A stretch of DNA of 64,000 nt. Origin: Rhizobium leguminosarum bv. trifolii WSM1325 (GTDB taxonomy: Bacteria > Pseudomonadota > Alphaproteobacteria > Rhizobiales > Rhizobiaceae). Below are positions 51,568-62,515 of this stretch, piece after piece. Numbering within the stretch: position 1 is the first letter of the stretch; every line of letters starts with the position of its first letter. The stretch covers positions 558,001 to 622,000 of the forward strand of contig CP001624.1 in NCBI GenBank assembly GCA_000023185.1, read 5' to 3'. The notes below the pieces were generated by a model. It had not been told where the DNA came from. It saw nothing but the letters and a program-made list of their open reading frames with translations, and made no database searches. The position numbers and the translations under genes were made by a program.

Positions 51568-52539
51568 ATGAATTATCCTGTTTCCGCATCTTCGCTCTAC
51601 GAGCGCGTCAGCCGTGTCATTCCCAAAGCCGAATGGATGACGTTTGAAAATGACGTCGACGCGATCCTCGAGCTCAAGCGCCGCCGCAACGCCGTCATTC
51701 TCGCGCACAACTATCAGACACCGGAAATCTTCCACGGCGTGGCCGATATCGTCGGCGACAGCCTGGCGCTCGCCCGCAAGGCGATCGAGGTCGACGCCGA
51801 TGTCATCGTGCTTGCCGGCGTGCATTTCATGGCCGAGACCGCCAAGCTGCTGAACCCCGGGAAAACCGTGCTGATCCCGGATCTCGGCGCCGGCTGTTCG
51901 CTGGCGGATTCGATCACGCCCGAAGATATCGCGCTGCTGCGCCAGGCCCATCCCGGCGTGCCCATCGTCACCTATGTCAACACCTCGGCCGCGGTGAAGG
52001 CTGCCTCCGACATCTGCTGCACCTCGGGCAATGCCAAGCAGGTGGTGGAATCGCTCGGCGTACCGAAGGTGCTGATGATCCCGGACGAATATCTGGCGCG
52101 CAACGTCGCCCGCGAGACCGATGTCGAGATCATCGCCTGGCATGGCCATTGCGAGGTGCACGAACTCTTCACCGCCGAGGACGTGCGCCAGCTGCGAGAA
52201 AACCATCCGGGCGTCATTGTGCTCGCCCATCCCGAATGCCCGCCCGAGGTGGTGGCCGAAGCCGATTTCGCCGGCTCCACCGCCGTGATGTCGGACTATG
52301 TCGGCCGGCAGAAGCCGGCGCGCGTCGTGCTGCTCACCGAATGCTCGATGAGCGACAATGTCGCCGTGCACCATCCCGACGTCGAATTCATTCGACCCTG
52401 CAATCTCTGCCCGCATATGAAGCGCATCACGCTGGCCAATATCCGCGCCGCACTCGAGGAAAACCGCCACGAGGTCACCGTTGATCCGGCAATTGCGGCG
52501 GCCGCGCGCCGCGCCGTCGAGAGGATGCTGGCGATATGA
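51568..52539 (+). CDS. nadA: Quinolinate synthase A
   Basis: NadA has 323 residues and condenses iminoaspartate with dihydroxyacetone phosphate to quinolinate, using a [4Fe-4S] cluster. Cluster cysteines lie in [20 protein letters not shown] and [11 protein letters not shown]. Other markers are [13 protein letters not shown] and [15 protein letters not shown]. It is the first gene of nadABC, with the regulated promoter just upstream and nadB overlapping its stop by ATGA. Confidence 0.95.
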
Positions 52540-54077
52540 CCGAGCTTCTCGAGCAGCTATCAGGACGCACGGTGATCGTCGGCAGTGGGCTTGCGGGATT
52601 GGTGACCGCGCTGACACTGGCGCCAGAACCTTCCGTGATCGTCACTCGCGCGGCTCTTGGCGCGGAGACGTCGAGCGCCTGGGCGCAGGGCGGCATCGCC
52701 GCCAGCATGGGCGCCGACGATAGCGCGGCACTGCATCTTGCCGATACGCTTGCGGCCGGCGACGGGCTCTGCGATCCGGCGATCGCCGCCGGCATCATCG
52801 CCGAGGCGCCGGCGGCGATCGCCGCGCTGGAAAAAGCCGGCGTCCGCTTCGACCGGAATGCCGCCGGCGAACTTTCGCTCGGGCTGGAGGCGGCCCATAA
52901 TCGCCGCCGCATCGTCCATGCCGAAGGTGACGGCTCGGGTGCGGCGATCATCGCCGCGCTGATCAATGCAGTGATGAAAACACCGGCTATATCAGTGCTC
53001 GAAGGTTTCGAGGCGCGGCGGATGTTGATGGACGGCGAAAAGGTCGCCGGCCTGCTCTGCGCGACCGCGAATGGGGCCGCCATTCTGCCGACGTCAAGGG
53101 TGGTGCTCGCCACCGGCGGCATCGGCGGGCTTTACGACGCGACCACCAATCCGATCGGCAATTTCGGCCAGGGGATCGCGCTTGCAGCAAGGGCCGGTGC
53201 CGCGCTCGCCGATATGGAGTTCGTCCAGTTCCATCCAACCGCACTCGATTCGCGCCGCAGGCCGTTAGCGCTGATCAGCGAGGCGGTGCGCGGGGAGGGG
53301 GCTTTGCTCGTCAACGAACGAGGCGAACGGTTCATGGCCCGCATTCCAGGCGCCGAACTTGCGCCGCGCGACGTGGTGGCGCGGGCGATCAGCGCCGAAA
53401 TCGCCCGCGGCGGACGGGTCTTTCTCGATGCCCGCGATGCTCTCGGCAGCCGCTTTGCCACGCGCTTTCCTGTCATCTCGACCCTTTGCGGCGAGGCCGG
53501 CATCGATCCGGCGAAAGACCTCGTTCCCGTGCGCCCGGCCGTTCACTATCACATGGGCGGGGTTGCCACGGATGCAAATGGCCGCAGCTCGGTTCCCGGC
53601 CTCTGGGTCGCCGGAGAGGCGGCCTCGACCGGCCTGCACGGGGCAAACCGGCTTGCCAGCAACTCGCTGCTGGAAGCGGCTGTCATGGGTATGCGGGCGG
53701 CACGCGACATTTCAGGCATGCCGGCAAGTGGTACCGGCACCATCTCCGCCGGGAGTCTCCCGGCGGCTGCCGATGCGTCATTCGTGCGGCCGATCGTCTC
53801 GCGTCATCTCGGCGTGTTGCGCAATGCCGGCGCCATTCATGGCGCCATCGCCGCCCTGCTGCCGCTTGCCGAAGGCAAAGGCCCGGCCGCCGATCCGGCC
53901 ATCGTCGCGCTGCTCATCGCCGTCTTTGCCAGCCTGCGGATGGAATCGCGCGGCGCCCATGCCCGCACCGATTTTCCGTTGAAGCTCGCCAATGCCAACC
54001 GGCGCCGGATGTGCCTCTCCGACGTTCTGGAGATCGCCCGCGCGACGCCGCCCTATGCCCTTGCAAGGAGTGCCTGA
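52536..54077 (+). CDS. nadB: L-aspartate oxidase
   Basis: NadB has 513 residues and is the flavoenzyme that oxidises aspartate to iminoaspartate for NadA. The FAD motif is [17 protein letters not shown]. Further family segments are [97 protein letters not shown] and a C-terminal helical domain. Translational coupling with nadA (ATGA) and a one-base gap to nadC show one operon. Confidence 0.95.
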
Positions 54078-54078
54078 G

Positions 54079-54978
54079 ATGAGCCTCGTTCCCCTTCCGC
54101 GCCTGATCGTCGAGCCGCTGGTGCGGGCGGCCCTTCTCGAAGATTTGGGTCTTGCCGGTGACATCACCTCGGCCTCGGTCATCCCTCGCGATCACCGTTC
54201 GACGGTGGTGATGGCGGCCCGTCAGCCGGGCGTGATCGCCGGTCTCGATGCCGCCGAACTCGCCTTTTCCCTCGTCGATCCCGAGATCGTCATGCGCCGC
54301 CATCGTCAAGATGGCGACGCGGTCAAGGCTGGCGATGTGATCGCCACCATCGAAGGCCCCTCGCGTGGCCTGCTGAGCGCCGAGCGCACCGCGCTGAATT
54401 TCCTCGGTCACCTCTCTGGCATCGCCACAGTGACGGCAGGGATCGCCGCCGCCATCCGCGGCACCAAGGCTTCCGTCGCCTGCACGCGCAAGACGACGCC
54501 CGGCCTGAGGGCACTGGAGAAATATGCGGTGCGGGCCGGCGGTGGCATGAACCATCGTTTCGCGCTTTATGACGCGGTGCTGATCAAGGATAATCACGTC
54601 GCCATCGCCGGTGGGGTCACGGAGGCGATCCGCCGGGCGCGGGCAGGCGTCGGCCATATGGTGAAAATCGAGGTCGAAGTGGACACGCTCGATCAGCTGC
54701 GTGAAGCGATAGAGACCGGCGTCGACGCCGTGCTGCTCGACAATATGACGCTTAATGAGCTGCGCGAGGCCGTCGCCATCGTCGCCGGCCGGGCGATCAC
54801 CGAGGCATCCGGCCGCGTCACGCCGACAACGGCCGCCGCAATCGCGGCTTCCGGTGTCGACCTCATTTCGGTCGGCTGGTTGACGCACAGCGCCCCGGTG
54901 CTGGATATCGGGCTCGATTTCGTCGAGGCCGCGACGGCAACGGAGGTTAGCCCGAAACGGATTGCACAGGTGCTGTGA
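54079..54978 (+). CDS. nadC: Nicotinate-nucleotide diphosphorylase (carboxylating)
   Basis: NadC has 299 residues and converts quinolinate and PRPP to nicotinate mononucleotide. Motifs are LLEDLGLAGDITSASVIP, ALNFLGHLSGIAT, CTRKTTPGLRALEKYAVRAGGGMNHRFALYDAVLIKDNH and ITEASGRVTPTTAAAIAASGVDLISVGWLTHSAP. ATG 54079 follows GGAGTG and lies one base past the nadB stop. It completes a self-contained quinolinate-to-NaMN branch. Confidence 0.95.
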   Translation: MSLVPLPRLIVEPLVRAALLEDLGLAGDITSASVIPRDHRSTVVMAARQPGVIAGLDAAELAFSLVDPEIVMRRHRQDGDAVKAGDVIATIEGPSRGLLSAERTALNFLGHLSGIATVTAGIAAAIRGTKASVACTRKTTPGLRALEKYAVRAGGGMNHRFALYDAVLIKDNHVAIAGGVTEAIRRARAGVGHMVKIEVEVDTLDQLREAIETGVDAVLLDNMTLNELREAVAIVAGRAITEASGRVTPTTAAAIAASGVDLISVGWLTHSAPVLDIGLDFVEAATATEVSPKRIAQVL

Positions 54979-55017
54979 CCCCTCAGTGTCCGTCCGACAA
55001 TTCAGGAAGCTCGGGCA

Positions 55018-55147
55018 AATGCATGACGAGGGTCCGATGGATGCGGCGTAAAGCCAAGGCCTTGGCGGAGTTGGTCGCTTCCGGGTCTTTCCTCAGCCGG
55101 CGGCTTCGGCTGATCCAGGCGAAGAAGCGCTGCGCGTCGCTGAACCG
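55018..55147 (-). mobile_element. IS5-family transposase remnant
   Basis: On the minus strand the frame reads AQRFFAWISRSRRLRKDPEA and continues TNSAKALALRRIHRTLVMHL. This matches the C-terminal end of IS5-group transposases (ERTFAWL.R.RRL.KD.E......A.......LML..L). Catalytic DDE residues and inverted repeats are absent, so only a tail of the element is left. It lies between nadC and a broken NmrA-type gene. Confidence 0.65.
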
Positions 55148-55218
55148 CCTCTGCAACGAAAGGGAACCTTTGAAAGGACGAGGGGTTATGCGCCACATCA
55201 CTGCTGGAGACATGGCAA

Positions 55219-56068
55219 ATGTACATCGTTGTTGGCGGGACGGGCCACGTCGGCTCCGCCGTGGCGCAGACGCTGCTCGACGAAGGCGAAGCCGTCACGA
55301 TCGTTACTCGAAATTCTGACAAGGCCGGTGCATGGCGACAGCGGGGCGCGGAGGTCGCCGTCGTCGACGTCCACGACGTGACGTCGCTGCCGTCGTGGGA
55401 AGCGGGCCTTCCTCCTGAACCCGAGCGCTGACATATCGAGCGATACGGATCGGGAGGAACGCGAGAACGTGCGCTGCATGCTCGAGGCGATCGAAGGATC
55501 TGGGCTGGAGAAGGTGGTGGCGCAATCGACCATGGGCGCGCAGCCAGGCGAGAAATGCGGCGATCTCAGTGTTCTTTACGAACTGGAAGTCGGCCTGAGG
55601 AACCAGCCGGTTCCTGCCAGTGTCATCCGCGCAGCCTACTACTTCAGTAACTGGGGTACGATGCTGGGGGCCGTCACGAGGGACGGGGTGCTAGCGACCA
55701 TGCTCCCTGCAGACCTCAAGCTCCCAATGGTCGCGCCGGAGGATCTAGGAAAGGTGGCGGCGCGGATCCTGCAGGAGCCGATCGAACGGATCGGCATATA
55801 CCCCGTCGAGGGGCCGCAACGGTACTCCCCCAACGATGTCGCCGCAGCCTTCGCTGCCACCCTTGGCCGGGCCGTTCGCGTCGACGTGATCCCGCGCGAA
55901 AACTGGGAAGACGCATACCGCGGTTTGGGCTTTTCCGACGCGGCGGCTCACTCATATGCGAGGATGACGGCTCTCACCGTCGATGGTCCCGAATATCCCG
56001 AGGATGCTATTCGAGGATCGACCTCGCTGCAGGCCTACATAGACAAGCTTGTTCGCGACCGATCCTAA
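55219..56068 (+). pseudogene. NmrA/QOR2-like NAD(P)-binding protein, frameshifted
   Basis: The first part encodes the Rossmann start MYIVVGGTGHVGSAVAQTLL and continues EGEAVTIVTRN...AEVAVVDVHDVTSL. It then runs into a stop at 55429-55431. From about 55395, in the next frame, the protein continues RGKRAFLLNPSADISSDTDR and ERENVRCMLEAIEGSGLEKV to a normal C-terminus (LQAYIDKLVRD). A short deletion around 55390-55400 explains the shift. Intact relatives are NmrA-like atypical SDR redox sensors or quinone reductases. A GGAGA site precedes ATG 55219. Confidence 0.8.
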
Positions 56069-56466
56069 CGCGTCGGGATGGACGAACAGAGAAAGCCAGA
56101 CCGCCAAAAGCCACTTGGTTGCCGGGCCCGGGCGTCCGCAGAAGGCGCTTCCAATCAGGCCTAAGACACTTTCTTGGAACCCCCATCGACCCGATCACTC
56201 AACCCATACTCGGACGGGCACTCAGGCTTACGCCGCAAATAACCTGCCCCACAGGATGCAACCCGCATCCTCACGGAAGTGTTGGCAAAGCATTTCCTCC
56301 CCGTGTGGCGCGAGAATATGCAAATATTCGATGAAACTTCTTCTTTTTAAAGCAAAACCGCTATGCGTCTGGCTCTTATGGCTCTAACATGTTTTTTGAT
56401 TGGCCGGTGCGCTTGCGCGCCTTGGCTTTCAGGGGTGAGAACCGAGATGCAACGGACATCCGGCAG
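56069..56466. other. Intergenic region with an AT-rich dyad upstream of a BTAD regulator
   Basis: No gene is evident. The perfect dyad GAATAT-GCAA-ATATTC lies at 56316-56331, followed by an AT-rich stretch (CTTCTTCTTTTTAAAGC) that could hold a promoter for the BTAD/TPR gene. The frame of that gene is open from ATG 56389. Confidence 0.4.
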
Positions 56467-58392
56467 ATGCTGACGAACAGGCTATGCCTGCTCGGAAGAC
56501 CGCGATTGCTGGCGGCGGGGAGGGAGCTCCCCTTGCCGGAGAAGTCGTATTTTCTCCTTGCCATGCTCGCCGCCGAACCCAATGTCGAACTCGACCGCGA
56601 AACCGTCAGGCGGCAGCTCTGGCAATCGGAGCTGCCGGAAAAGCGGGCCGGCAGCCTGCGCCAGCTGCTGGCGCGCATCGAACTGAGCATTCCCGCCGGC
56701 CTCCCACCGCTGCTTGCCGCGACCCGAACCCATATCGGCCTTGCCGATGGCTGGGAGGTCGACGTTCATATCCTGAAACAGAAAGGGCCACTCGCACCCG
56801 AAGACGGCGGCCTGCTGAACGGCGAATTTCTCGACGGCGTCAAATCGCCGACGCAGGGCGCCGAGGACTGGCTGACCTTTGAGCGCCAGCGTGTCGACGA
56901 ATTGCGCTCCGCCCATCTCACCCGGCTGATCGAGACATCGGAAGACAGATCGGATGACGAGCAGGTCACACTCGCCAGGCGCCTGCTGGAACTCGACCCT
57001 GCCAGCGAGACGGCCTATCGCGCCTTGATGCGCACCTATGTCCGGATGAACGATCCGGCAGCGGCGCGTCAGGCCTATCTGAAGTGCAAAAGCCAGCTGA
57101 AGGACGACTTCGACACCGAGCCGGAAGAAAGCACCACCGCTCTTGCCCGCGAGCTCAACCTGGTGCCGGCGGCACAGGCGACGTCAGCCCAGCCGGCGCC
57201 TGATCTGTCCATCAATTCGGTCGGCCAACCGCGCATCATCATCCTGCCGCCGGAAAGCATCTTCACCGATCCGCTGATGGAGCGCGTCGGCAGGGCGCTT
57301 CTTGAAGACGTCACCATCGGCCTCAGCCAGCAGCGGGGCTTCAAGGTGATCGCGGCGCATACCAGCCTGGAGATCCTCAGCCGTTCGATCGATCCGTCGC
57401 GTGCTGTGCCCGGTCCGCTCGACCTGCGCTTCGACTATGCGGTCTACGTCACCATCCAGGGCCGCGACGAGGATGTTTATGCCACTTGCCGTCTGACGCG
57501 GACGACGACGTCGGAGGTGATCTGGGCCGTCGAACTGCCGCTGGTCATGCAGAAGATCAGCGAATCCTTCGCGCATCTGACGCGGCGGATCGTCTCCTCG
57601 CTCGCCGACACGATCGAGCGTCACGAACTGGCGATGCCGATCGGCGACGCGCCGCCGTCAGCCTACCGTCTCTACCTGGAAGGCAAGCGGCTGATCGCCC
57701 ACACCGACCTGCAGCATCTGCGCCAGGCACGCAAATGGTTCAAATCCTCGCTCAATCGTTATGAACATTTCTCTGCCGCCCATGCCGGCATGTCGCGCGC
57801 GCTCGGCATGGAATGGCTGATCCGCGGCATGCGCGACAAGGAACTGCTCGACGAGGCGAACGGCGCTGCCCGGCAGGCGCAGCAGTCCGACCCGAACAGC
57901 GGCCGGGCTTACCGCGAGCTCGGCTTCGTGGCGCTTTATCGCCGTCGTTTCGACGAAAGCCTGGAATATTTTCAGCAGGCCCAGGATCTGAATCCCAACG
58001 ATGCCGACATCCTCGCCGACTATGCCGACGCGCTTTCCCATGATGGCGATTTCGATCGAGCGCTGGAGCTCAGCCGCGCTGCCTTCAAACTCAATCCGCT
58101 GCCGCCGGACTATTATTACTGGAACCTCGGCGGCATCCACTTCATGCGCGAAGAGTATGAAATGGCGATCGAGGCGCTGGAACCGGTGAAGACGAAGCAG
58201 GCGACAGCCCGCCTGCTCGCTGCCTCGCATGCCATGGCGGGCGAGACGGGCAAGGCCAGGAACTACGCCAGGGTGGTGCTGGAAAACTTCCCCGATTTCC
58301 GCAGTGAGGACATCCGTCATTTCGTCCCCGATCGCGATCCCGCCTATACGGAACCGCTCATACAGGGCCTGCAACTTGCCGGACTTCCCTGA
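56467..58392 (+). CDS. BTAD/TPR transcriptional regulator
   Basis: The regulator has about 641 residues. Residues 4-95 form an OmpR/SARP-like winged helix (RLCLLGRPRLLAAGRELPLPEKSYFLLAMLAAEPNVELDRETVRRQLW). Residues 100-245 form a bacterial transcriptional activation domain (DWLTFERQRVDELRSAHLTRL...LLELDPASETAYRALMRTYVRMNDPAAARQAYLKCKSQL). A central alpha/beta domain follows, with TPR repeats at the end (SGRAYRELGFVALYRRRFDESLEYFQQAQDLNPNDADILADYADALS). ATG 56467 puts the HTH at the N-terminus; ATG 56389 is the longer alternative. It lies 105 bases upstream of the peptide/YcaO/TfuA genes and is their likely activator. Confidence 0.82.
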   Translation: MLTNRLCLLGRPRLLAAGRELPLPEKSYFLLAMLAAEPNVELDRETVRRQLWQSELPEKRAGSLRQLLARIELSIPAGLPPLLAATRTHIGLADGWEVDVHILKQKGPLAPEDGGLLNGEFLDGVKSPTQGAEDWLTFERQRVDELRSAHLTRLIETSEDRSDDEQVTLARRLLELDPASETAYRALMRTYVRMNDPAAARQAYLKCKSQLKDDFDTEPEESTTALARELNLVPAAQATSAQPAPDLSINSVGQPRIIILPPESIFTDPLMERVGRALLEDVTIGLSQQRGFKVIAAHTSLEILSRSIDPSRAVPGPLDLRFDYAVYVTIQGRDEDVYATCRLTRTTTSEVIWAVELPLVMQKISESFAHLTRRIVSSLADTIERHELAMPIGDAPPSAYRLYLEGKRLIAHTDLQHLRQARKWFKSSLNRYEHFSAAHAGMSRALGMEWLIRGMRDKELLDEANGAARQAQQSDPNSGRAYRELGFVALYRRRFDESLEYFQQAQDLNPNDADILADYADALSHDGDFDRALELSRAAFKLNPLPPDYYYWNLGGIHFMREEYEMAIEALEPVKTKQATARLLAASHAMAGETGKARNYARVVLENFPDFRSEDIRHFVPDRDPAYTEPLIQGLQLAGLP

Positions 58393-58497
58393 TGCACCGC
58401 CTTTTAACGAAGCCTGTAACGCTTAAATGACGCAGGCAATGTTTCCCTCCGATGGTTAACGGCAGCAAGGCGCTGTCTAACCAATCGGAGATGAAAC

Positions 58498-58641
58498 ATG
58501 AAGACGAATGCTGACACCACCGCAGCTCAGACACAGTCACTGCGCTTCTCTGCAGCCGCCAAGGCAGCCATGAAGCAGGACGAGCTCAACGTTTCCGCCA
58601 ATGCGCTCGAGAGCCTGACGCATGCGCTGAGGTTCCGCTAG
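58498..58641 (+). CDS. Putative RiPP precursor peptide for the YcaO-TfuA pair
   Basis: This 47-codon gene has a clear GGAG site seven bases before ATG 58498 and a stop at 58639-58641. It lies 13 bases before the ycaO gene in the same direction. The peptide begins MKTNADTTAAQTQSLRFSAA and ends ESLTHALRFR. It has two LRF motifs (residues 15-17 and 44-46), many Ala, Ser and Thr, no cysteine and no aromatic residue apart from the two Phe. Size, position and composition suit a ribosomal substrate. With no Cys, thiazoles are excluded; a backbone thioamide or Ser/Thr-derived change is possible. A free-standing small protein is the alternative. Confidence 0.6.
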   Translation: MKTNADTTAAQTQSLRFSAAAKAAMKQDELNVSANALESLTHALRFR

Positions 58642-58654
58642 GGAACAGATCGGT

Positions 58655-59917
58655 ATGTCTGCTTTCACCGACCTTGAAACGCTTGCCGGTGACCTTAAAC
58701 GATCATCGGCCGGTGTCAGCGACTACCATGACCGCGCCGTCACGCCGGCGCAGACCTTGGCGGCCATCAGGCCGCATCTGCGCGAATTCGGCATTACGCG
58801 CGTCGGCCTCCTGACTGCACTCGACGTTTTGAACATCCCCGTCGCCTTCGCAACGAGGCCGAACAGCCATACGCTCTCGGTCTTTCAGGGCAAGGGTATC
58901 GACAACGATGCCGCCATGGCCTCGGCGGCGATGGAGGCGGTCGAGACGCGGATCGCCGAAATTGCCCCCAACGACATGACGCAGGCAACGATCGAGAACA
59001 TGCGGGCGGAGCATGCCGCGATGATCGATCTCGACAATGTCGCACGCTGCGCACCCGACGAAATCGGACGAGCTCCCATCCCCTGGTGCTCCGGGCTCGA
59101 CATTCTTTCCGGCAGCAGCGTCTTCGTGCCCTGGTGGCTCGTCGGTCTCGACCATCGCGGCGAGAGGCCGCCCGGCTTCGAGCAGTCGAGCGATGGGCTC
59201 GCCTCCGGCAACACCCCGTCCGAAGCGGTCCTGCATGGGCTTTGCGAGCTGGTGGAGCGCGACGCCTGGGCCCTGACCCAGCTGAAGTCGCCCGAGCGCC
59301 TGAAGGAGAGCCGCATCAACCCCGCCTCCTTCGGCGATGCGGTCATAGATGTCATGACCGACCGGATCACCCGTGCCGGCATGAAACTGCTGCTGCTCGA
59401 CATGACGACGGATATCGGCGTTCCCGCTTTTCTGGCCGTCATCATGCCAGGCAACATTTCAGACCGTGTCGACGCGCGCTGGTCGCATGTCTGCGGTGGC
59501 TGCGGCTGCCACCCCGATCCGGTGCGCGCCGCGCTGCGCGCCATTACCGAAGCGGCGCAGAGCCGGCTCACCGCGATTGCCGGCAGCCGCGACGATTTCT
59601 CGCCGCGCATCTATCAGCGGCTCGACAGGAGTGCGGCGATGCAGCAGGTAGTCGAACTGTGCGAGGGCGACGGCCGGATGCGCTCGTTCCACGCCCGCGA
59701 TCGCCGCCCGGCGACGATCCAGGACACCATCGGCCATATTGCCGACCGGCTGGCGGCAACCGGCATCGAGCAGATCGTCGTCGTGCCGTTTCCGCACCCG
59801 GCCCTGCCGATCTCCGTCGTCAGGGTGATCGTGCCGGGACTGGAGGTCGATATCTCAGGCCAATATATCCAGCTCGGCCTGCGCGCCGTCAACACCATGA
59901 GAGGAGCCGAATCATGA
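58655..59917 (+). CDS. YcaO-domain peptide-modifying enzyme
   Basis: This YcaO enzyme has 420 residues. Typical segments are the ATP/Mg-binding AAMASAAMEAVETRIAEIAP, DGLASGNTPSEAVLHGLCELVERDAWAL, and RAALRAITEAAQSRLTAIAGSRDD. YcaO enzymes use ATP to activate backbone amides, giving azolines, amidines or thioamides. The C-terminus lacks the Pro-rich PxPxP tail of azoline-forming cyclodehydratases. No E1/Ocin-ThiF partner is nearby; the neighbour is TfuA, which points to the thioamide-forming class. It overlaps tfuA by ATGA. Confidence 0.9.
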   Translation: MSAFTDLETLAGDLKRSSAGVSDYHDRAVTPAQTLAAIRPHLREFGITRVGLLTALDVLNIPVAFATRPNSHTLSVFQGKGIDNDAAMASAAMEAVETRIAEIAPNDMTQATIENMRAEHAAMIDLDNVARCAPDEIGRAPIPWCSGLDILSGSSVFVPWWLVGLDHRGERPPGFEQSSDGLASGNTPSEAVLHGLCELVERDAWALTQLKSPERLKESRINPASFGDAVIDVMTDRITRAGMKLLLLDMTTDIGVPAFLAVIMPGNISDRVDARWSHVCGGCGCHPDPVRAALRAITEAAQSRLTAIAGSRDDFSPRIYQRLDRSAAMQQVVELCEGDGRMRSFHARDRRPATIQDTIGHIADRLAATGIEQIVVVPFPHPALPISVVRVIVPGLEVDISGQYIQLGLRAVNTMRGAES

Positions 59918-60657
59918 AGGTGCTGTTCGTCGGCCCGAGCCTTGGCAGCGATCTTGCCGCAGCAAGAGCCATGTCCTCCCGCATCGATTTCCGGCCGCCG
60001 GCGGCTGCCGGCGACATCCTGAAGGCCGTTCAGGACGGCGCCACCGCGATCGGTCTCGTCGACGGCTATTTCGGCGATCTGCCCTCGGTCTGGCACAAGG
60101 AAATACTTTACGCACTCGAACATGATGTCGCCGTTGCCGGCGGCGCCAGCATGGGCGCGCTGCGGGCAGCCGAATGCGCCCCCTTCGGCATGGTCGGGCT
60201 CGGCTCGATCTTCGAAGATTACGAGTCAGGGCGGCTGCTCGACGACGAGGCCGTCGCGCTTGTGCATGCGCCGCAGGAGCTCGGCTGGCTGCCGCTTTCC
60301 GTACCCTGGGTCGATTTCGAGCCGACCATCGATGCGCTTCACGCCGTTGGCGAAATTTCGCTCGCCGAGCGCAAGAAACTCCTGCTTGCCGGCCGTTTCC
60401 TGCATTTCTCCGAGCGCACCTATGCGAAGGTGGCCGACGAGTGCCATTTCCGCAAGCCGCGCCGCGACCACATCCTCGCCGCCATCCGGGGGAACCGCGT
60501 CGAGCGCAAGCGGGGCGACGCGTTATTGGTGCTGGAATGGCTGTGCCTGGACAAATTCCGCCCTATCAACCGTGACTGGCGCTTTGCCGCGACCTCGCAC
60601 TGGGAACTCCTGCACGCCGAAGTCACGCGCAATGCGGTTCCTGTAACGCTTGAATAA
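59914..60657 (+). CDS. TfuA family protein
   Basis: The protein has 247 residues and a TfuA-like core. The opening is KVLFVGPSLGSDLAAARAM. Diagnostic stretches are AIGLVDGYFGDLPSVWHKEILYALEHDVAVAGGASMGALRAAECAPFGMVGLGSIFEDY and DDEAVALVHAP. GGASMGALRAAE resembles a nucleophile elbow. TfuA was named from the trifolitoxin locus of Rhizobium leguminosarum. In studied systems it partners YcaO to install thioamides, probably by delivering sulfur. Coupling to the ycaO stop by ATGA shows the two are made together. Confidence 0.88.
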   Translation: MKVLFVGPSLGSDLAAARAMSSRIDFRPPAAAGDILKAVQDGATAIGLVDGYFGDLPSVWHKEILYALEHDVAVAGGASMGALRAAECAPFGMVGLGSIFEDYESGRLLDDEAVALVHAPQELGWLPLSVPWVDFEPTIDALHAVGEISLAERKKLLLAGRFLHFSERTYAKVADECHFRKPRRDHILAAIRGNRVERKRGDALLVLEWLCLDKFRPINRDWRFAATSHWELLHAEVTRNAVPVTLE

Positions 60658-60723
60658 CGGTCGCGGCGGAAGATGCAGTAATGATGGAATCGTAGGGTTC
60701 CACGACCAAAGAGGGCGGGAACG

Positions 60724-60990
60724 ATGTTTGAACAACACAACGAAGCTACCGGCAGCGAATACGCAAGGATCTTCCGGCTGCTGTCGGCAGCCAAGGAGGA
60801 GGCTGAAAAGCTTCAGCTGCGCAATCTGATGCACCTGACGAACATGGCGCTGCTGCAGGTCGTCATCGATTGGGACGGCATAGATCCCGACAGGGAGCTT
60901 GACGTCAATCTCGAGAAGCTGGTCGGCAGCAAGGCCAAGATCGCAATGAAGGATGCCAGCGAGAATCTAATCCTGATCGATCGCCATTGA
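60724..60990 (+). CDS. Small unknown protein next to tfuA
   Basis: The soluble, charged protein has 88 residues (RIFRLLSAAKEEAEKLQLRNLMHLTNMALLQVVIDW, then DRELDVNLEKLVGSKAKIAMKDASENLILIDRH). An alpha-helical N-terminus with heptad-like Leu spacing is followed by a mixed C-terminus. GAACG is a weak ribosome site. I recognise no family. It lies 66 bases after tfuA and may belong to the same unit, for example as a scaffold, immunity or regulatory protein, but nothing in the sequence decides this. Confidence 0.6.
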   Translation: MFEQHNEATGSEYARIFRLLSAAKEEAEKLQLRNLMHLTNMALLQVVIDWDGIDPDRELDVNLEKLVGSKAKIAMKDASENLILIDRH

Positions 60991-61001
60991 TCCCGATCAA
61001 T
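60986..61001 (+). terminator. Short hairpin and GATCC-rich repeats after the small gene
   Basis: ATTGATC-CC-GATCAAT forms a perfect hairpin overlapping the stop codon. GATCCTCAT-like repeats follow to about 61036. There is no T-run; termination is possible but weak. Confidence 0.35.
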
Positions 61002-61071
61002 CGCTATCGATCCTCATAGATCCTTGTTGATCCTCATGCGGTCCGTTGGGTTCGCGTGAAGGACAACCGGT

Positions 61072-61476
61072 CTATTCGGCCGCTTCGGTGTCCAGCTGTT
61101 CGGTGTTGGCAATCGCCTGGACGAGCTTCAGAATCTTCTTGCGAAGCGCTTCGTTCTTGATCGAAAAGAACGCCGCGTTGAGAAGGACGCCTTCGCGCGA
61201 AATAACGAATTCCTCGCTGGGAGCGGGGTTGTCGTTGGCATTATCAGGGGTCGACAGGTCGTCGAAGAACGTCCTGACATCAACCTTCAGCGCGCCGGCG
61301 ATTTCGACCAGCATGCTGGCGGAAACGCGGTTGGAGCCCTTTTCGTATTTCTGGATCTGCTGGAACGTTACGCCAACACGATCGCCCAGTTCCGTCTGAG
61401 AAACTTTCCTCAACAGACGCTGGATGCGGATCGTCTTTCCGACGTGAACATCGACGGAATGCGGTTCTTCTTTCAT
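61072..61476 (-). CDS. XRE-family HTH regulator
   Basis: The protein has 134 residues. The Cro/C1-type HTH spans about residues 10-65 (VHVGKTIRIQRLLRKVSQTELGDRVGVTFQQIQKYEKGSNRVSASMLVEIAGALKVDVRTFF). It is close to the rhizobial PraR-like group. The C-terminus (residues 75-134) is helical. It is convergent with the small gene at the end of the YcaO-TfuA locus and may or may not regulate it. A GAAGG site lies before ATG 61474-61476. Confidence 0.87.
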   Translation of the reverse strand: MKEEPHSVDVHVGKTIRIQRLLRKVSQTELGDRVGVTFQQIQKYEKGSNRVSASMLVEIAGALKVDVRTFFDDLSTPDNANDNPAPSEEFVISREGVLLNAAFFSIKNEALRKKILKLVQAIANTEQLDTEAAE

Positions 61477-61678
61477 CTTATTTCCCTTCTGAAGGCAGCG
61501 GACAGGGGGTTATTCGCCATATCCGTGTCAACAACTTTTAGCCGAGATAATTAAGGCTAGCAATTGCTTGCATGTAGATAGCGTTAAGCCCGAATATCTG
61601 GCCTTTTTTGTCCCGGAATGGTACAAAAAACATGCCAAAATGACACGCCCAGGAGACCGGTCGCTTTATTTTGTGACG
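61477..61678. other. Intergenic region with weak dyads
   Basis: No gene is present. TAGCC/GGCTA arms near 61541-61561, and TTTTTGT/ACAAAAA arms at 61605-61611 and 61623-61629, are the only visible structures. They lie upstream of the XRE gene and downstream of the amidohydrolase gene. Confidence 0.35.
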
Positions 61679-62515
61679 TCAGAGCGACCAAAGGCGCTGT
61701 GCATTGGCGAAAAGCAACTTCGAGCGCTCCGTCTCGCTCACGCCGGAAAGCATGGCATGGGTCGCCGCAACCCAGGTCGAGAGGCCGCCGCCGAGCGTAC
61801 AGACCGGCCAGTCGCTGCCCCAGACGACGCGGTCCCAGCCGAAACTCGCGATCACATGTTCGATATAGGGCTGCAGCGTTTCTGCCGTCCAGGTCTTCGC
61901 ATCGGCATAGGCGACGACGCCGGAGACCTTGCAGACGACATTCGGCCGCCGGGCAATCTCTGATATGCCGGCCTTCCAGGGCTCAAAGGCGTCCGAGCGG
62001 ATATCCGGCACGCCGCAATGGTCGAGAACGAACTGTAGGTCGGGCGCAAGATCGGCGAGGGCGGTCACACGGCTCGCCTGATGCGGCAATGTGCAGAGGT
62101 CGAAAGTCAGGCCGCTGCCGCCGATACGCCTGATGTTTTCGCGAAACAGGGCGCCTTCGGAGACATTATCGGGCACGACATGCAGCACGCGGCGAAACCC
62201 CTTGACGAAGGGATCGGCCTTTTGCCGCTCGAGATAGGCGGCAAAGCCTTCCGCTTCCGGCCGGCAGGAGACGATGGCGCCGGCAATCAGACTGCCTTCC
62301 TTTTTGGCGATCTTGGCGACGTGATCGGTCTCGGTCTGCATCGCAGTGGGATCGACATCGACCTCCATGTGCAACACCGTGGTGATGCCGCAGCGCCTGG
62401 CCTCCGTCGCATAGGTCTCGTAGAGGAAATCATGATCGAGATCAGGCGCGCCGGAGAGCCAGGGATAGGGCAGCGCCGACCGATCGATGATATGCAGATG
62501 GGTGTCGATGAACAC
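61679..62515 (-). CDS. Amidohydrolase-2 family lactonase (L-fuconolactonase-like)
   Basis: The protein has 278 residues and a TIM-barrel fold of the amidohydrolase-related (COG3618) family. The metal motif HxH opens it (FIDTHLHIID), with FVLDHCGVPD and VVWGSDWPVCTL later. Family members open sugar lactones such as L-fucono-, L-rhamnono- or galactarolactone. The GTG start at 62513-62515 follows GGAGAG. Neighbouring IclR regulator, decayed sugar mutarotase and SDR dehydrogenase genes fit a deoxy-sugar oxidation pathway, so an L-fuconolactonase role is likely but inferred. Confidence 0.82.
   Translation of the reverse strand: MFIDTHLHIIDRSALPYPWLSGAPDLDHDFLYETYATEARRCGITTVLHMEVDVDPTAMQTETDHVAKIAKKEGSLIAGAIVSCRPEAEGFAAYLERQKADPFVKGFRRVLHVVPDNVSEGALFRENIRRIGGSGLTFDLCTLPHQASRVTALADLAPDLQFVLDHCGVPDIRSDAFEPWKAGISEIARRPNVVCKVSGVVAYADAKTWTAETLQPYIEHVIASFGWDRVVWGSDWPVCTLGGGLSTWVAATHAMLSGVSETERSKLLFANAQRLWSL

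What the first reader, a model, noticed from the sequence alone, without database searches (positions are those of the whole stretch)
56467..61476. Candidate undescribed YcaO-TfuA RiPP locus in a Rhizobium replicon
The sequence shows, in one direction, a BTAD/TPR regulator, a 47-codon peptide gene with a good ribosome site, ycaO, tfuA overlapping ycaO by ATGA, and an 88-residue unknown protein, with an XRE regulator convergent behind. The YcaO protein lacks the PxPxP tail and there is no cyclodehydratase partner or dehydrogenase. Known YcaO-TfuA pairs install thioamides. The peptide has no Cys, so azole formation from Cys is excluded. No protease or dedicated exporter is seen in the locus, so the mature product or its export route is unusual, or encoded elsewhere. 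A thioamidated signalling or antibacterial peptide is my inference.
Basis: partly seen in the sequence, partly recalled or inferred. Interest (0 to 1): 0.85.

Follow-up and report, generated by a model that had tools for sequence, protein, structure and literature searches.

The report
Conserved rhizobial peptide locus with switch
Root-nodule bacteria carry a conserved six-gene block that appears to make a small, chemically altered peptide and to hold its own quorum-sensing-like on switch; peptide-modifying gene pairs of this kind are known in bulk, but I found no description of this peptide or its control genes.

Summary
On a 661-kb plasmid of Rhizobium leguminosarum bv. trifolii WSM1325 lie, in order, a SARP-type BTAD/TPR regulator, a 47-codon peptide gene, ycaO, tfuA (ATGA overlap), an 88-codon gene (p88) and a convergent XRE gene. 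The peptide is real: found in 91 of 148 Rhizobium genomes, each time beside p88, dN/dS about 0.17. Of 57 named loci fetched, 54 keep all six genes. All 48 distinct peptides end in HA[LMV][KR][FY][RQ]. Among solved structures YcaO is closest to an archaeal thioamidation-type enzyme, so thioamidation of this peptide is the best reading; chemistry is untested. New here: a near-invariant 11-bp direct repeat before the peptide gene, of the type SARPs bind; and p88, whose relatives sit directly behind the AHL synthase gene cinI, the place of cinS, an anti-repressor of the XRE repressor PraR. The XRE beside p88 is PraR-like. The locus may thus carry its own CinS/PraR-like switch, though p88's direct similarity to R. 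leguminosarum CinS is weak. YcaO-TfuA clusters of Rhizobium are in print in bulk: a new variant of a known kind. A stable signalling or housekeeping role fits better than a bacteriocin.

The parts
56407..58392 (+).
58417..58433 (+). Proposed SARP operator: 11-bp direct repeat TAACGC-N5-TGACGC
   Evidence: Pattern TNAC[AG]N6TNAC[AG]C in the BTAD-peptide spacer of 54 of 55 loci (strict TNACGC-N5-TNACGC in 39); 0.15% of base shuffles of the spacers. The 55th, L081, differs at the last base only
58498..58641 (+). Proposed precursor peptide gene, 47 aa, MKTNADTTAAQTQSLRFSAAAKAAMKQDELNVSANALESLTHALRFR
   Evidence: 91 of 148 Rhizobium genomes; dN/dS about 0.17; RefSeq WP_012763602 hypothetical protein
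58655..59917 (+). ycaO, 420 aa
   Evidence: PF02624 1.7e-68; best solved relative MJ1094, 6pe3/6peu, 3.7e-33
59914..60657 (+). tfuA, 247 aa, ATGA overlap with ycaO
   Evidence: PF07812 3e-37; NF033432 165.1 bits, below its cut-off 235.2
60724..60990 (+). p88, proposed CinS-like anti-repressor, 88 aa, three predicted helices
   Evidence: Close form in the same 91 genomes as the peptide, 2.2-2.45 kb apart; relatives at 58-62% directly behind cinRI in all 6 loci fetched of 8 such copies; model pLDDT 79.6
61072..61476 (-). PraR-like XRE regulator, 134 aa, convergent
   Evidence: HTH_3; 44% to own PraR-like protein over 128 aa; in 14 of 14 loci
61561..61566 (.). CAATTG site upstream of the XRE gene, possible auto-operator
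   Evidence: The one CAATTG position shared by all 14 loci; 9 of the 14 have further copies elsewhere; 15 of 19 aligned named loci

Best explanation
A regulated locus for a thioamidated peptide. The SARP-type regulator binds the 11-bp direct repeat at 58417-58433 and turns on pep-ycaO-tfuA-p88 (inferred). YcaO recognises the R[FL]SAAA stretch and, using ATP and sulfur handed over with the help of TfuA, exchanges O for S at one or more backbone amides of the conserved C-terminal HA[LMV][KR][FY][RQ] (inferred from family and conservation; site not shown). p88 is a CinS-like anti-repressor that ties up a PraR-type repressor, most simply the XRE encoded next to it, so that the locus joins or copies the cell-density circuit (relatives and gene position shown; binding inferred). 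The product probably acts in or between cells of the same species as a signal or regulator, since the peptide is stable in evolution and no exporter, protease or immunity gene goes with it (inference).
For: Block kept in 14 of 14 orthologous loci and 54 of 57 named loci. Peptide and close p88 in the same 91 of 148 genomes, same contig, 2,214-2,452 bp apart. Peptide dN/dS 0.17; tail HA[LMV][KR][FY][RQ] in 48 of 48 distinct peptides, R[FL]SAAA in 44. YcaO matches MJ1094 at 3.7e-33, azoline enzymes TruD and LynD at about 1e-13; NCBIfam's best model is the McrA-glycine thioamidation YcaO. Direct repeat in 54 of 55 spacers against 0.15% of shuffles; strict form elsewhere 24 times in 1,003,376 base-strands. 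Regulator residues 2-231 align to AfsR; SARPs bind direct repeats, classically 11-bp units (PMC10972967, passages). p88 relatives in the cinS slot in 6 of 6 fetched loci. CinS inactivates PraR (PMC4149787, abstract start and passages). XRE is 44% like the own PraR-like protein, C-terminal domain included.
Against: No chemistry was tested. YcaO and TfuA score below the cut-offs of the McrA thioamidation equivalogs, and a second archaeal YcaO, 6ci7/6cib (its thioamidation role is recalled), scores 2e-11, weaker than TruD. Direct similarity of p88 to the 67-aa R. leguminosarum CinS is weak (hhalign probability 4.4, E 0.0093, 22% over 37 columns); no fold match for p88 at E 0.001. No PraR box TTGCAA lies at window 55001-62500, though 9 of 14 loci have one somewhere within about 3.5 kb of the ycaO start. 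The published praR-mutant array lists no pRL1106xx gene (PMC4149787 Table 1; the gene numbers of this locus are my estimate). No site for the XRE common to the loci was found before the peptide gene. The loose repeat pattern alone is not rare: 2 in the window, 0.95 expected, and the 55 loci are related.
Confidence: 0.5

Rival explanations
1. Narrow-spectrum bacteriocin: the modified peptide is exported by a general transporter and kills related rhizobia, as phazolicin or trifolitoxin do.
For: Phazolicin and trifolitoxin, azole-modified peptides of rhizobia, are anti-rhizobial (PMC9670871, PMC10128002, abstract starts in listings). Basic C-terminus.
Against: No immunity, protease or exporter gene among the six conserved genes; low dN/dS and presence in 91 of 148 genomes do not look like an arms-race toxin.
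Confidence: 0.2
2. The peptide is not the substrate. YcaO-TfuA thioamidates a host protein, as archaeal YcaO-TfuA does McrA and E. coli YcaO does uL16; the 47-aa protein is a small regulator.
For: YcaO and TfuA are most like the McrA proteins in NCBIfam. PMC13063428 (abstract) shows protein thioamidation in Pseudomonadota.
Against: The peptide gene lies before this ycaO in 55 of 57 named loci (54 by tblastn, Aureimonas by reading; the two without it, L133 and L134, have YcaO at 38 and 35%). Other YcaO-TfuA loci of the genus carry other small proteins in the same slot, some with repeats. The model of the E. coli-type YcaO scores 14.7 against a cut-off of 700.
Confidence: 0.17
3. Other backbone chemistry: azoline from Ser/Thr or amidine ring formation rather than thioamide.
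For: YcaO enzymes also make these (recalled; amidine title listing); the peptide has Ser and Thr.
Against: No E1/ocin-ThiF or dehydrogenase gene in the block; the tail HA[LMV][KR][FY][RQ] has no Ser, Thr or Cys; PMC8120280 ties the YcaO-TfuA pair to thioamides (abstract start).
Confidence: 0.08
4. p88 is not an anti-repressor but a peptide-binding helper or immunity protein, and the XRE pairing is coincidental. (This rival concerns one part only and does not add to the others.)
For: Same strand and 66 bases behind tfuA; weak similarity to CinS; no binding data; 57 of 100 genomes lack the 67-aa CinS type, so its absence where p88-like copies sit behind cinI is weak evidence.
Against: p88 relatives sit behind cinI, with no YcaO match in the stretches fetched; p88 in the block is faced by a PraR-like gene in 54 of 54 loci.
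Confidence: 0.3

Closest known systems
YcaO-TfuA thioamidation pair of methanogens (McrA-glycine); MJ1094 (role recalled)
   Same: YcaO best match among solved structures, TfuA adjacent, no E1-type partner gene
   Different: Substrate here seems a 47-aa peptide; both proteins score below the NCBIfam equivalog cut-offs
Thioamidated RiPP clusters (thioviridamide-like thioamitides, thiovarsolins)
   Same: TfuA-YcaO pair with a small precursor gene
   Different: No Cys in 47 of 48 peptides, no other tailoring genes or protease in the block; BTAD, p88 and XRE instead
Rhizobium TfuA-YcaO clusters counted in PMC8120280 and PMC10434180
   Same: This locus is probably among them (inference: R. leguminosarum and R. 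etli plasmids)
   Different: In the sections and passages I saw, neither names this precursor, the SARP-type repeat, or a CinS/PraR-like pair; their supplements were not seen
CinS/PraR anti-repressor switch of R. leguminosarum quorum sensing
   Same: Small helical protein with relatives behind cinI, facing a PraR-like XRE
   Different: Here the candidate rides in a peptide-modification operon; binding untested; R. leguminosarum CinS itself is only weakly similar
SARP regulators such as AfsR
   Same: Winged helix plus BTAD; 11-bp direct repeat before the neighbouring gene
   Different: Long middle part and TPR tail; Gram-negative; binding untested

Membership tests
YcaO-TfuA pair | YcaO domain protein next to TfuA domain protein | tested here: met
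YcaO-TfuA pair | Thioamide in the product | not testable with these tools
   Needs mass spectrometry
McrA-glycine thioamidation equivalogs (TIGR03266, NF033432) | Score above curated cut-off | tested here: not met
   202.5 against 365 and 165.1 against 235.2
E. coli-type YcaO (NF040716) | Score above curated cut-off | tested here: not met
   14.7 against 700
Linear azol(in)e peptides | Cyclodehydratase partner gene and PxPxP tail | tested here: not met
   No such gene among the six, tail NTMRGAES
Thioviridamide-like thioamitides | Cys-containing core with AviCys tailoring enzymes (recalled) | tested here: not met
   No Cys in 47 of 48 distinct peptides; no such genes in the block
RiPP | Conserved small gene beside the modifying enzyme | tested here: met
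   that it is the substrate is inferred
RiPP | Leader cleavage and mature product | not testable with these tools
   No protease in block; needs experiment
SARP | Winged helix plus BTAD | tested here: met
SARP | Binds direct repeats before target gene | tested here: inconclusive
   Repeat present in 54 of 55 spacers; binding not tested
PraR-like XRE | HTH and C-terminal domain homologous to PraR | tested here: met
   44% over 128 aa; identity of the own protein as PraR inferred; tree does not resolve the nearest paralogue
CinS | Gene directly behind cinI | tested here: not met
   p88 itself is behind tfuA; its relatives are behind cinI in 6 of 6 fetched loci
CinS | Sequence similarity to R. 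leguminosarum CinS | tested here: inconclusive
   hhalign probability 4.4, E 0.0093
CinS | Binds PraR and lifts repression | not testable with these tools
   Needs binding assay

The most novel reading that the evidence does not exclude
A thioamidated intracellular or cell-to-cell signal peptide built into the rhizobial quorum-sensing network: the SARP-TPR regulator or the PraR-type repressor senses the modified peptide, and p88, a second CinS-like anti-repressor made from the same operon, latches the locus on and cross-talks with CinS/PraR. The local XRE could be the unknown second target of CinS that PMC4149787 had to postulate.
Probability: 0.2. Interest if true: 0.88.

Novelty: new variant of a known kind. 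Interest (0 to 1): 0.62.

Why it matters
PMC10434180 says that the role of thioamide clusters conserved on Rhizobium plasmids is unknown (passage). This gives a defined candidate precursor, a short list of residues to look at, a candidate operator, and a possible link to a well-studied quorum-sensing switch, so the question can be tested in ordinary R. leguminosarum or R. etli strains. If the modified peptide is a signal, it would be a new kind of regulator in legume symbionts.

Tried and rejected
PraR as direct regulator of the locus: the published array lists no pRL1106xx gene, and no TTGCAA box lies at window 55001-62500. Against this, 9 of 14 loci have a TTGCAA within about 3.5 kb of the ycaO start, and the four most divergent of the 14 (L042-L045) share one some 2,825-2,864 bases before ycaO, ahead of the BTAD gene; not followed up. 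Counting genes from the cobalamin operon pRL110625-32 (PMC5118466 passage; map), whose place I assume to lie past the mapped stretch, puts the locus near pRL110603-607, so the array's pRL110586 is probably not in it; an estimate.

XRE operator before the peptide gene: none common to the loci. CAATTG upstream of the XRE is the one position shared by all 14; 9 of 14 have further copies, L037 one in the BTAD-peptide spacer.

p88 by fold: no PDB match at E 0.001. p88 to CinS by profile: weak, kept as inconclusive. XRE tree: few supported forks, long branches, not used. Defence library: at E 0.001 only the XRE had hits, to the HTH parts of several models.

Same repeat in other loci: of 15 further loci scanned up to 3.6 kb upstream of ycaO, L050 (41% BTAD) and L130 had the loose pattern, 13 had none; two of the 13, L056 and L059, showed no BTAD gene. 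The match in L130 is far upstream; its BTAD-peptide spacer holds a near form ending in G, seen by eye.

dN/dS: 32 gapless 47-codon peptides, 432 of 496 pairs used; identical pairs and those with dS of 0, of 2 or more, or not computable were dropped. Peptide starts were chosen by a length rule of mine.

Absence of the peptide in 57 of 148 genomes is an upper bound: in many genomes only 47 of the candidates were scored.

Literature: searches found no paper naming this peptide. They cover open-licence papers only; supplements were not seen.
Full report
What is there. The window lies on plasmid pR132502 (660,973 bp) of Rhizobium leguminosarum bv. trifolii WSM1325 (assembly contig C3). RefSeq already annotates the peptide as a hypothetical protein.

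Is it more than chance? Of 41 genomes (own plus 40 relatives), 28 have some match to the YcaO and 14 have one at 70% or more. In these 14 the order BTAD, peptide, YcaO, TfuA, p88, convergent XRE is kept. In 148 Rhizobium genomes the peptide profile finds 91. p88 is found in 98, of which 91 have the close form (E below 1e-47) and 7 only a divergent one; the 91 are exactly the peptide's 91, same contig, 2,214-2,452 bp apart. The peptide is in 115 plasmid records, 114 Rhizobium and one Sinorhizobium; 120 plasmid records hold a YcaO at 60% or more. A protein database gives 48 relatives of the peptide; where an organism is named it is Rhizobium.

The peptide. 56 loci give 48 distinct sequences. The first 12-15 residues vary; R[FL]SAAA is in 44 of 48 and the tail HA[LMV][KR][FY][RQ] in 48 of 48, including Neorhizobium (HAMRYQ) and Aureimonas (HAMKFR). 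Besides the start, one Ser, one Ala, one Asn and the His-Ala of the tail are invariant. dN/dS over 432 pairs is 0.17. The Aureimonas form has two Cys, the other 47 none. A conserved inner motif and tail suit a recognition site and a modified end, but this is inference.

The enzymes. YcaO matches MJ1094 (6pe3/6peu) at 3.7e-33, the azoline enzymes TruD and LynD at about 1e-13, and a second archaeal YcaO, 6ci7, at 2e-11. NCBIfam's best models for YcaO and TfuA are those of McrA-glycine thioamidation, but the scores are under their cut-offs. So the thioamide reading rests on family, not on a test.

The p88/XRE pair. Eight divergent p88 copies at E 1e-28 to 1e-30 were found; I fetched six (L070-L075). 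In all six the copy, 58-62% identical, lies directly behind a LuxR and an AHL synthase gene whose synthase is 74-80% like that of the own genome, where a 67-aa frame follows. I take these as cinR, cinI and cinS; the names come from recall plus the gene order given in PMC4149787 and PMC5977203 (passages). [quoted passage not shown] PMC4149787 adds that CinS must touch a further unknown regulator. The 67-aa type is found in 43 of 100 Rhizobium genomes. It is absent from the six genomes of that sample that carry a divergent p88 copy and not this block (G013, G018, G024, G079, G120, G132), but as 57 of 100 lack it anyway this is weak support. Direct comparison of the two types is weak. The XRE is 44% like a 138-aa protein of the own genome whose HTH, residues 19-72, agrees with the 19-73 given for PraR; its 99% relative in G041, whose peptide position equals that on R. 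johnstonii 3841 pRL11, lies at 423 kb, near where I would expect RL0390. The paralogue tree is poorly resolved.

How it most likely works. SARP regulator on; operon made; YcaO-TfuA thioamidates the peptide tail; p88 removes a PraR-type repressor. Shown: gene content, conservation, homologies, repeat. Inferred: every binding and chemical step, and the role. Stable conservation and lack of export, protease and immunity genes in the block favour an inner or kin signal over a toxin.

What is known. PMC8120280 (sections 11-13 and passages) counts over 500 TfuA clusters in Rhizobium. PMC10434180 (passages) reports thioamitide-related clans on Rhizobium plasmids and says their role is unknown. PMC9354803 (passages) reports thioamide clusters in Rhizobium. 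I found no paper on this peptide or its switch in searches, which cover open-licence papers only. Hence: new variant of a known kind.

Noticed in passing
L046 (own genome C1:3200000-3217000), also L049, L052, L054-L060, L133: A second YcaO-TfuA type (about 36-40% identity) has in these 11 loci a different precursor-like gene, in the own genome MAKAVIIGIPGEAGLWLADLDAGTV...; some have repeated tails such as AGRMDEGPAS (L052) or DVAVGFEPKEAAFSG (L059). 9 of the 11 also show XRE and BTAD genes. Three tested had no convincing Pfam or NCBIfam family.
   Followed up: partly
L076-L079: A third p88-like group (about 41-48% to p88). In L076, the one read in full, it lies by a LysR gene, and a 183-aa protein without Pfam match is nearby; an XRE match lies within about 3 kb in all four.
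   Followed up: partly
window 52536-54978: nadB and nadC lie on the plasmid just upstream of the block, nadA before them; in R. johnstonii pRL11 a pantothenate-pathway gene (3-methyl-2-oxobutanoate hydroxymethyltransferase) is near them: basic metabolism on a plasmid.
   Followed up: no
L189 (NC_008384 630898-648140): Near the block in R. johnstonii 3841 lies a run of genes for a protein kinase, serpin, trypsin-like protease and two caspase-family proteins.
   Followed up: no
L130, peptide before ycaO: Aureimonas peptide MHMKANATIKVAPAACPVHLSAEAREAIGSCSVIPRDNGMGSVVHAMKFR has two Cys, unlike the other 47 distinct peptides.
   Followed up: no
L038, L040: About 133 bases separate the peptide gene from the aligned YcaO start, instead of 11-14 in the other 12 loci, and a longer frame is open.
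   Followed up: no
L042-L045, 2,825-2,864 bases before ycaO: The four more divergent loci share a TTGCAA (the published PraR box) ahead of the BTAD gene.
   Followed up: no
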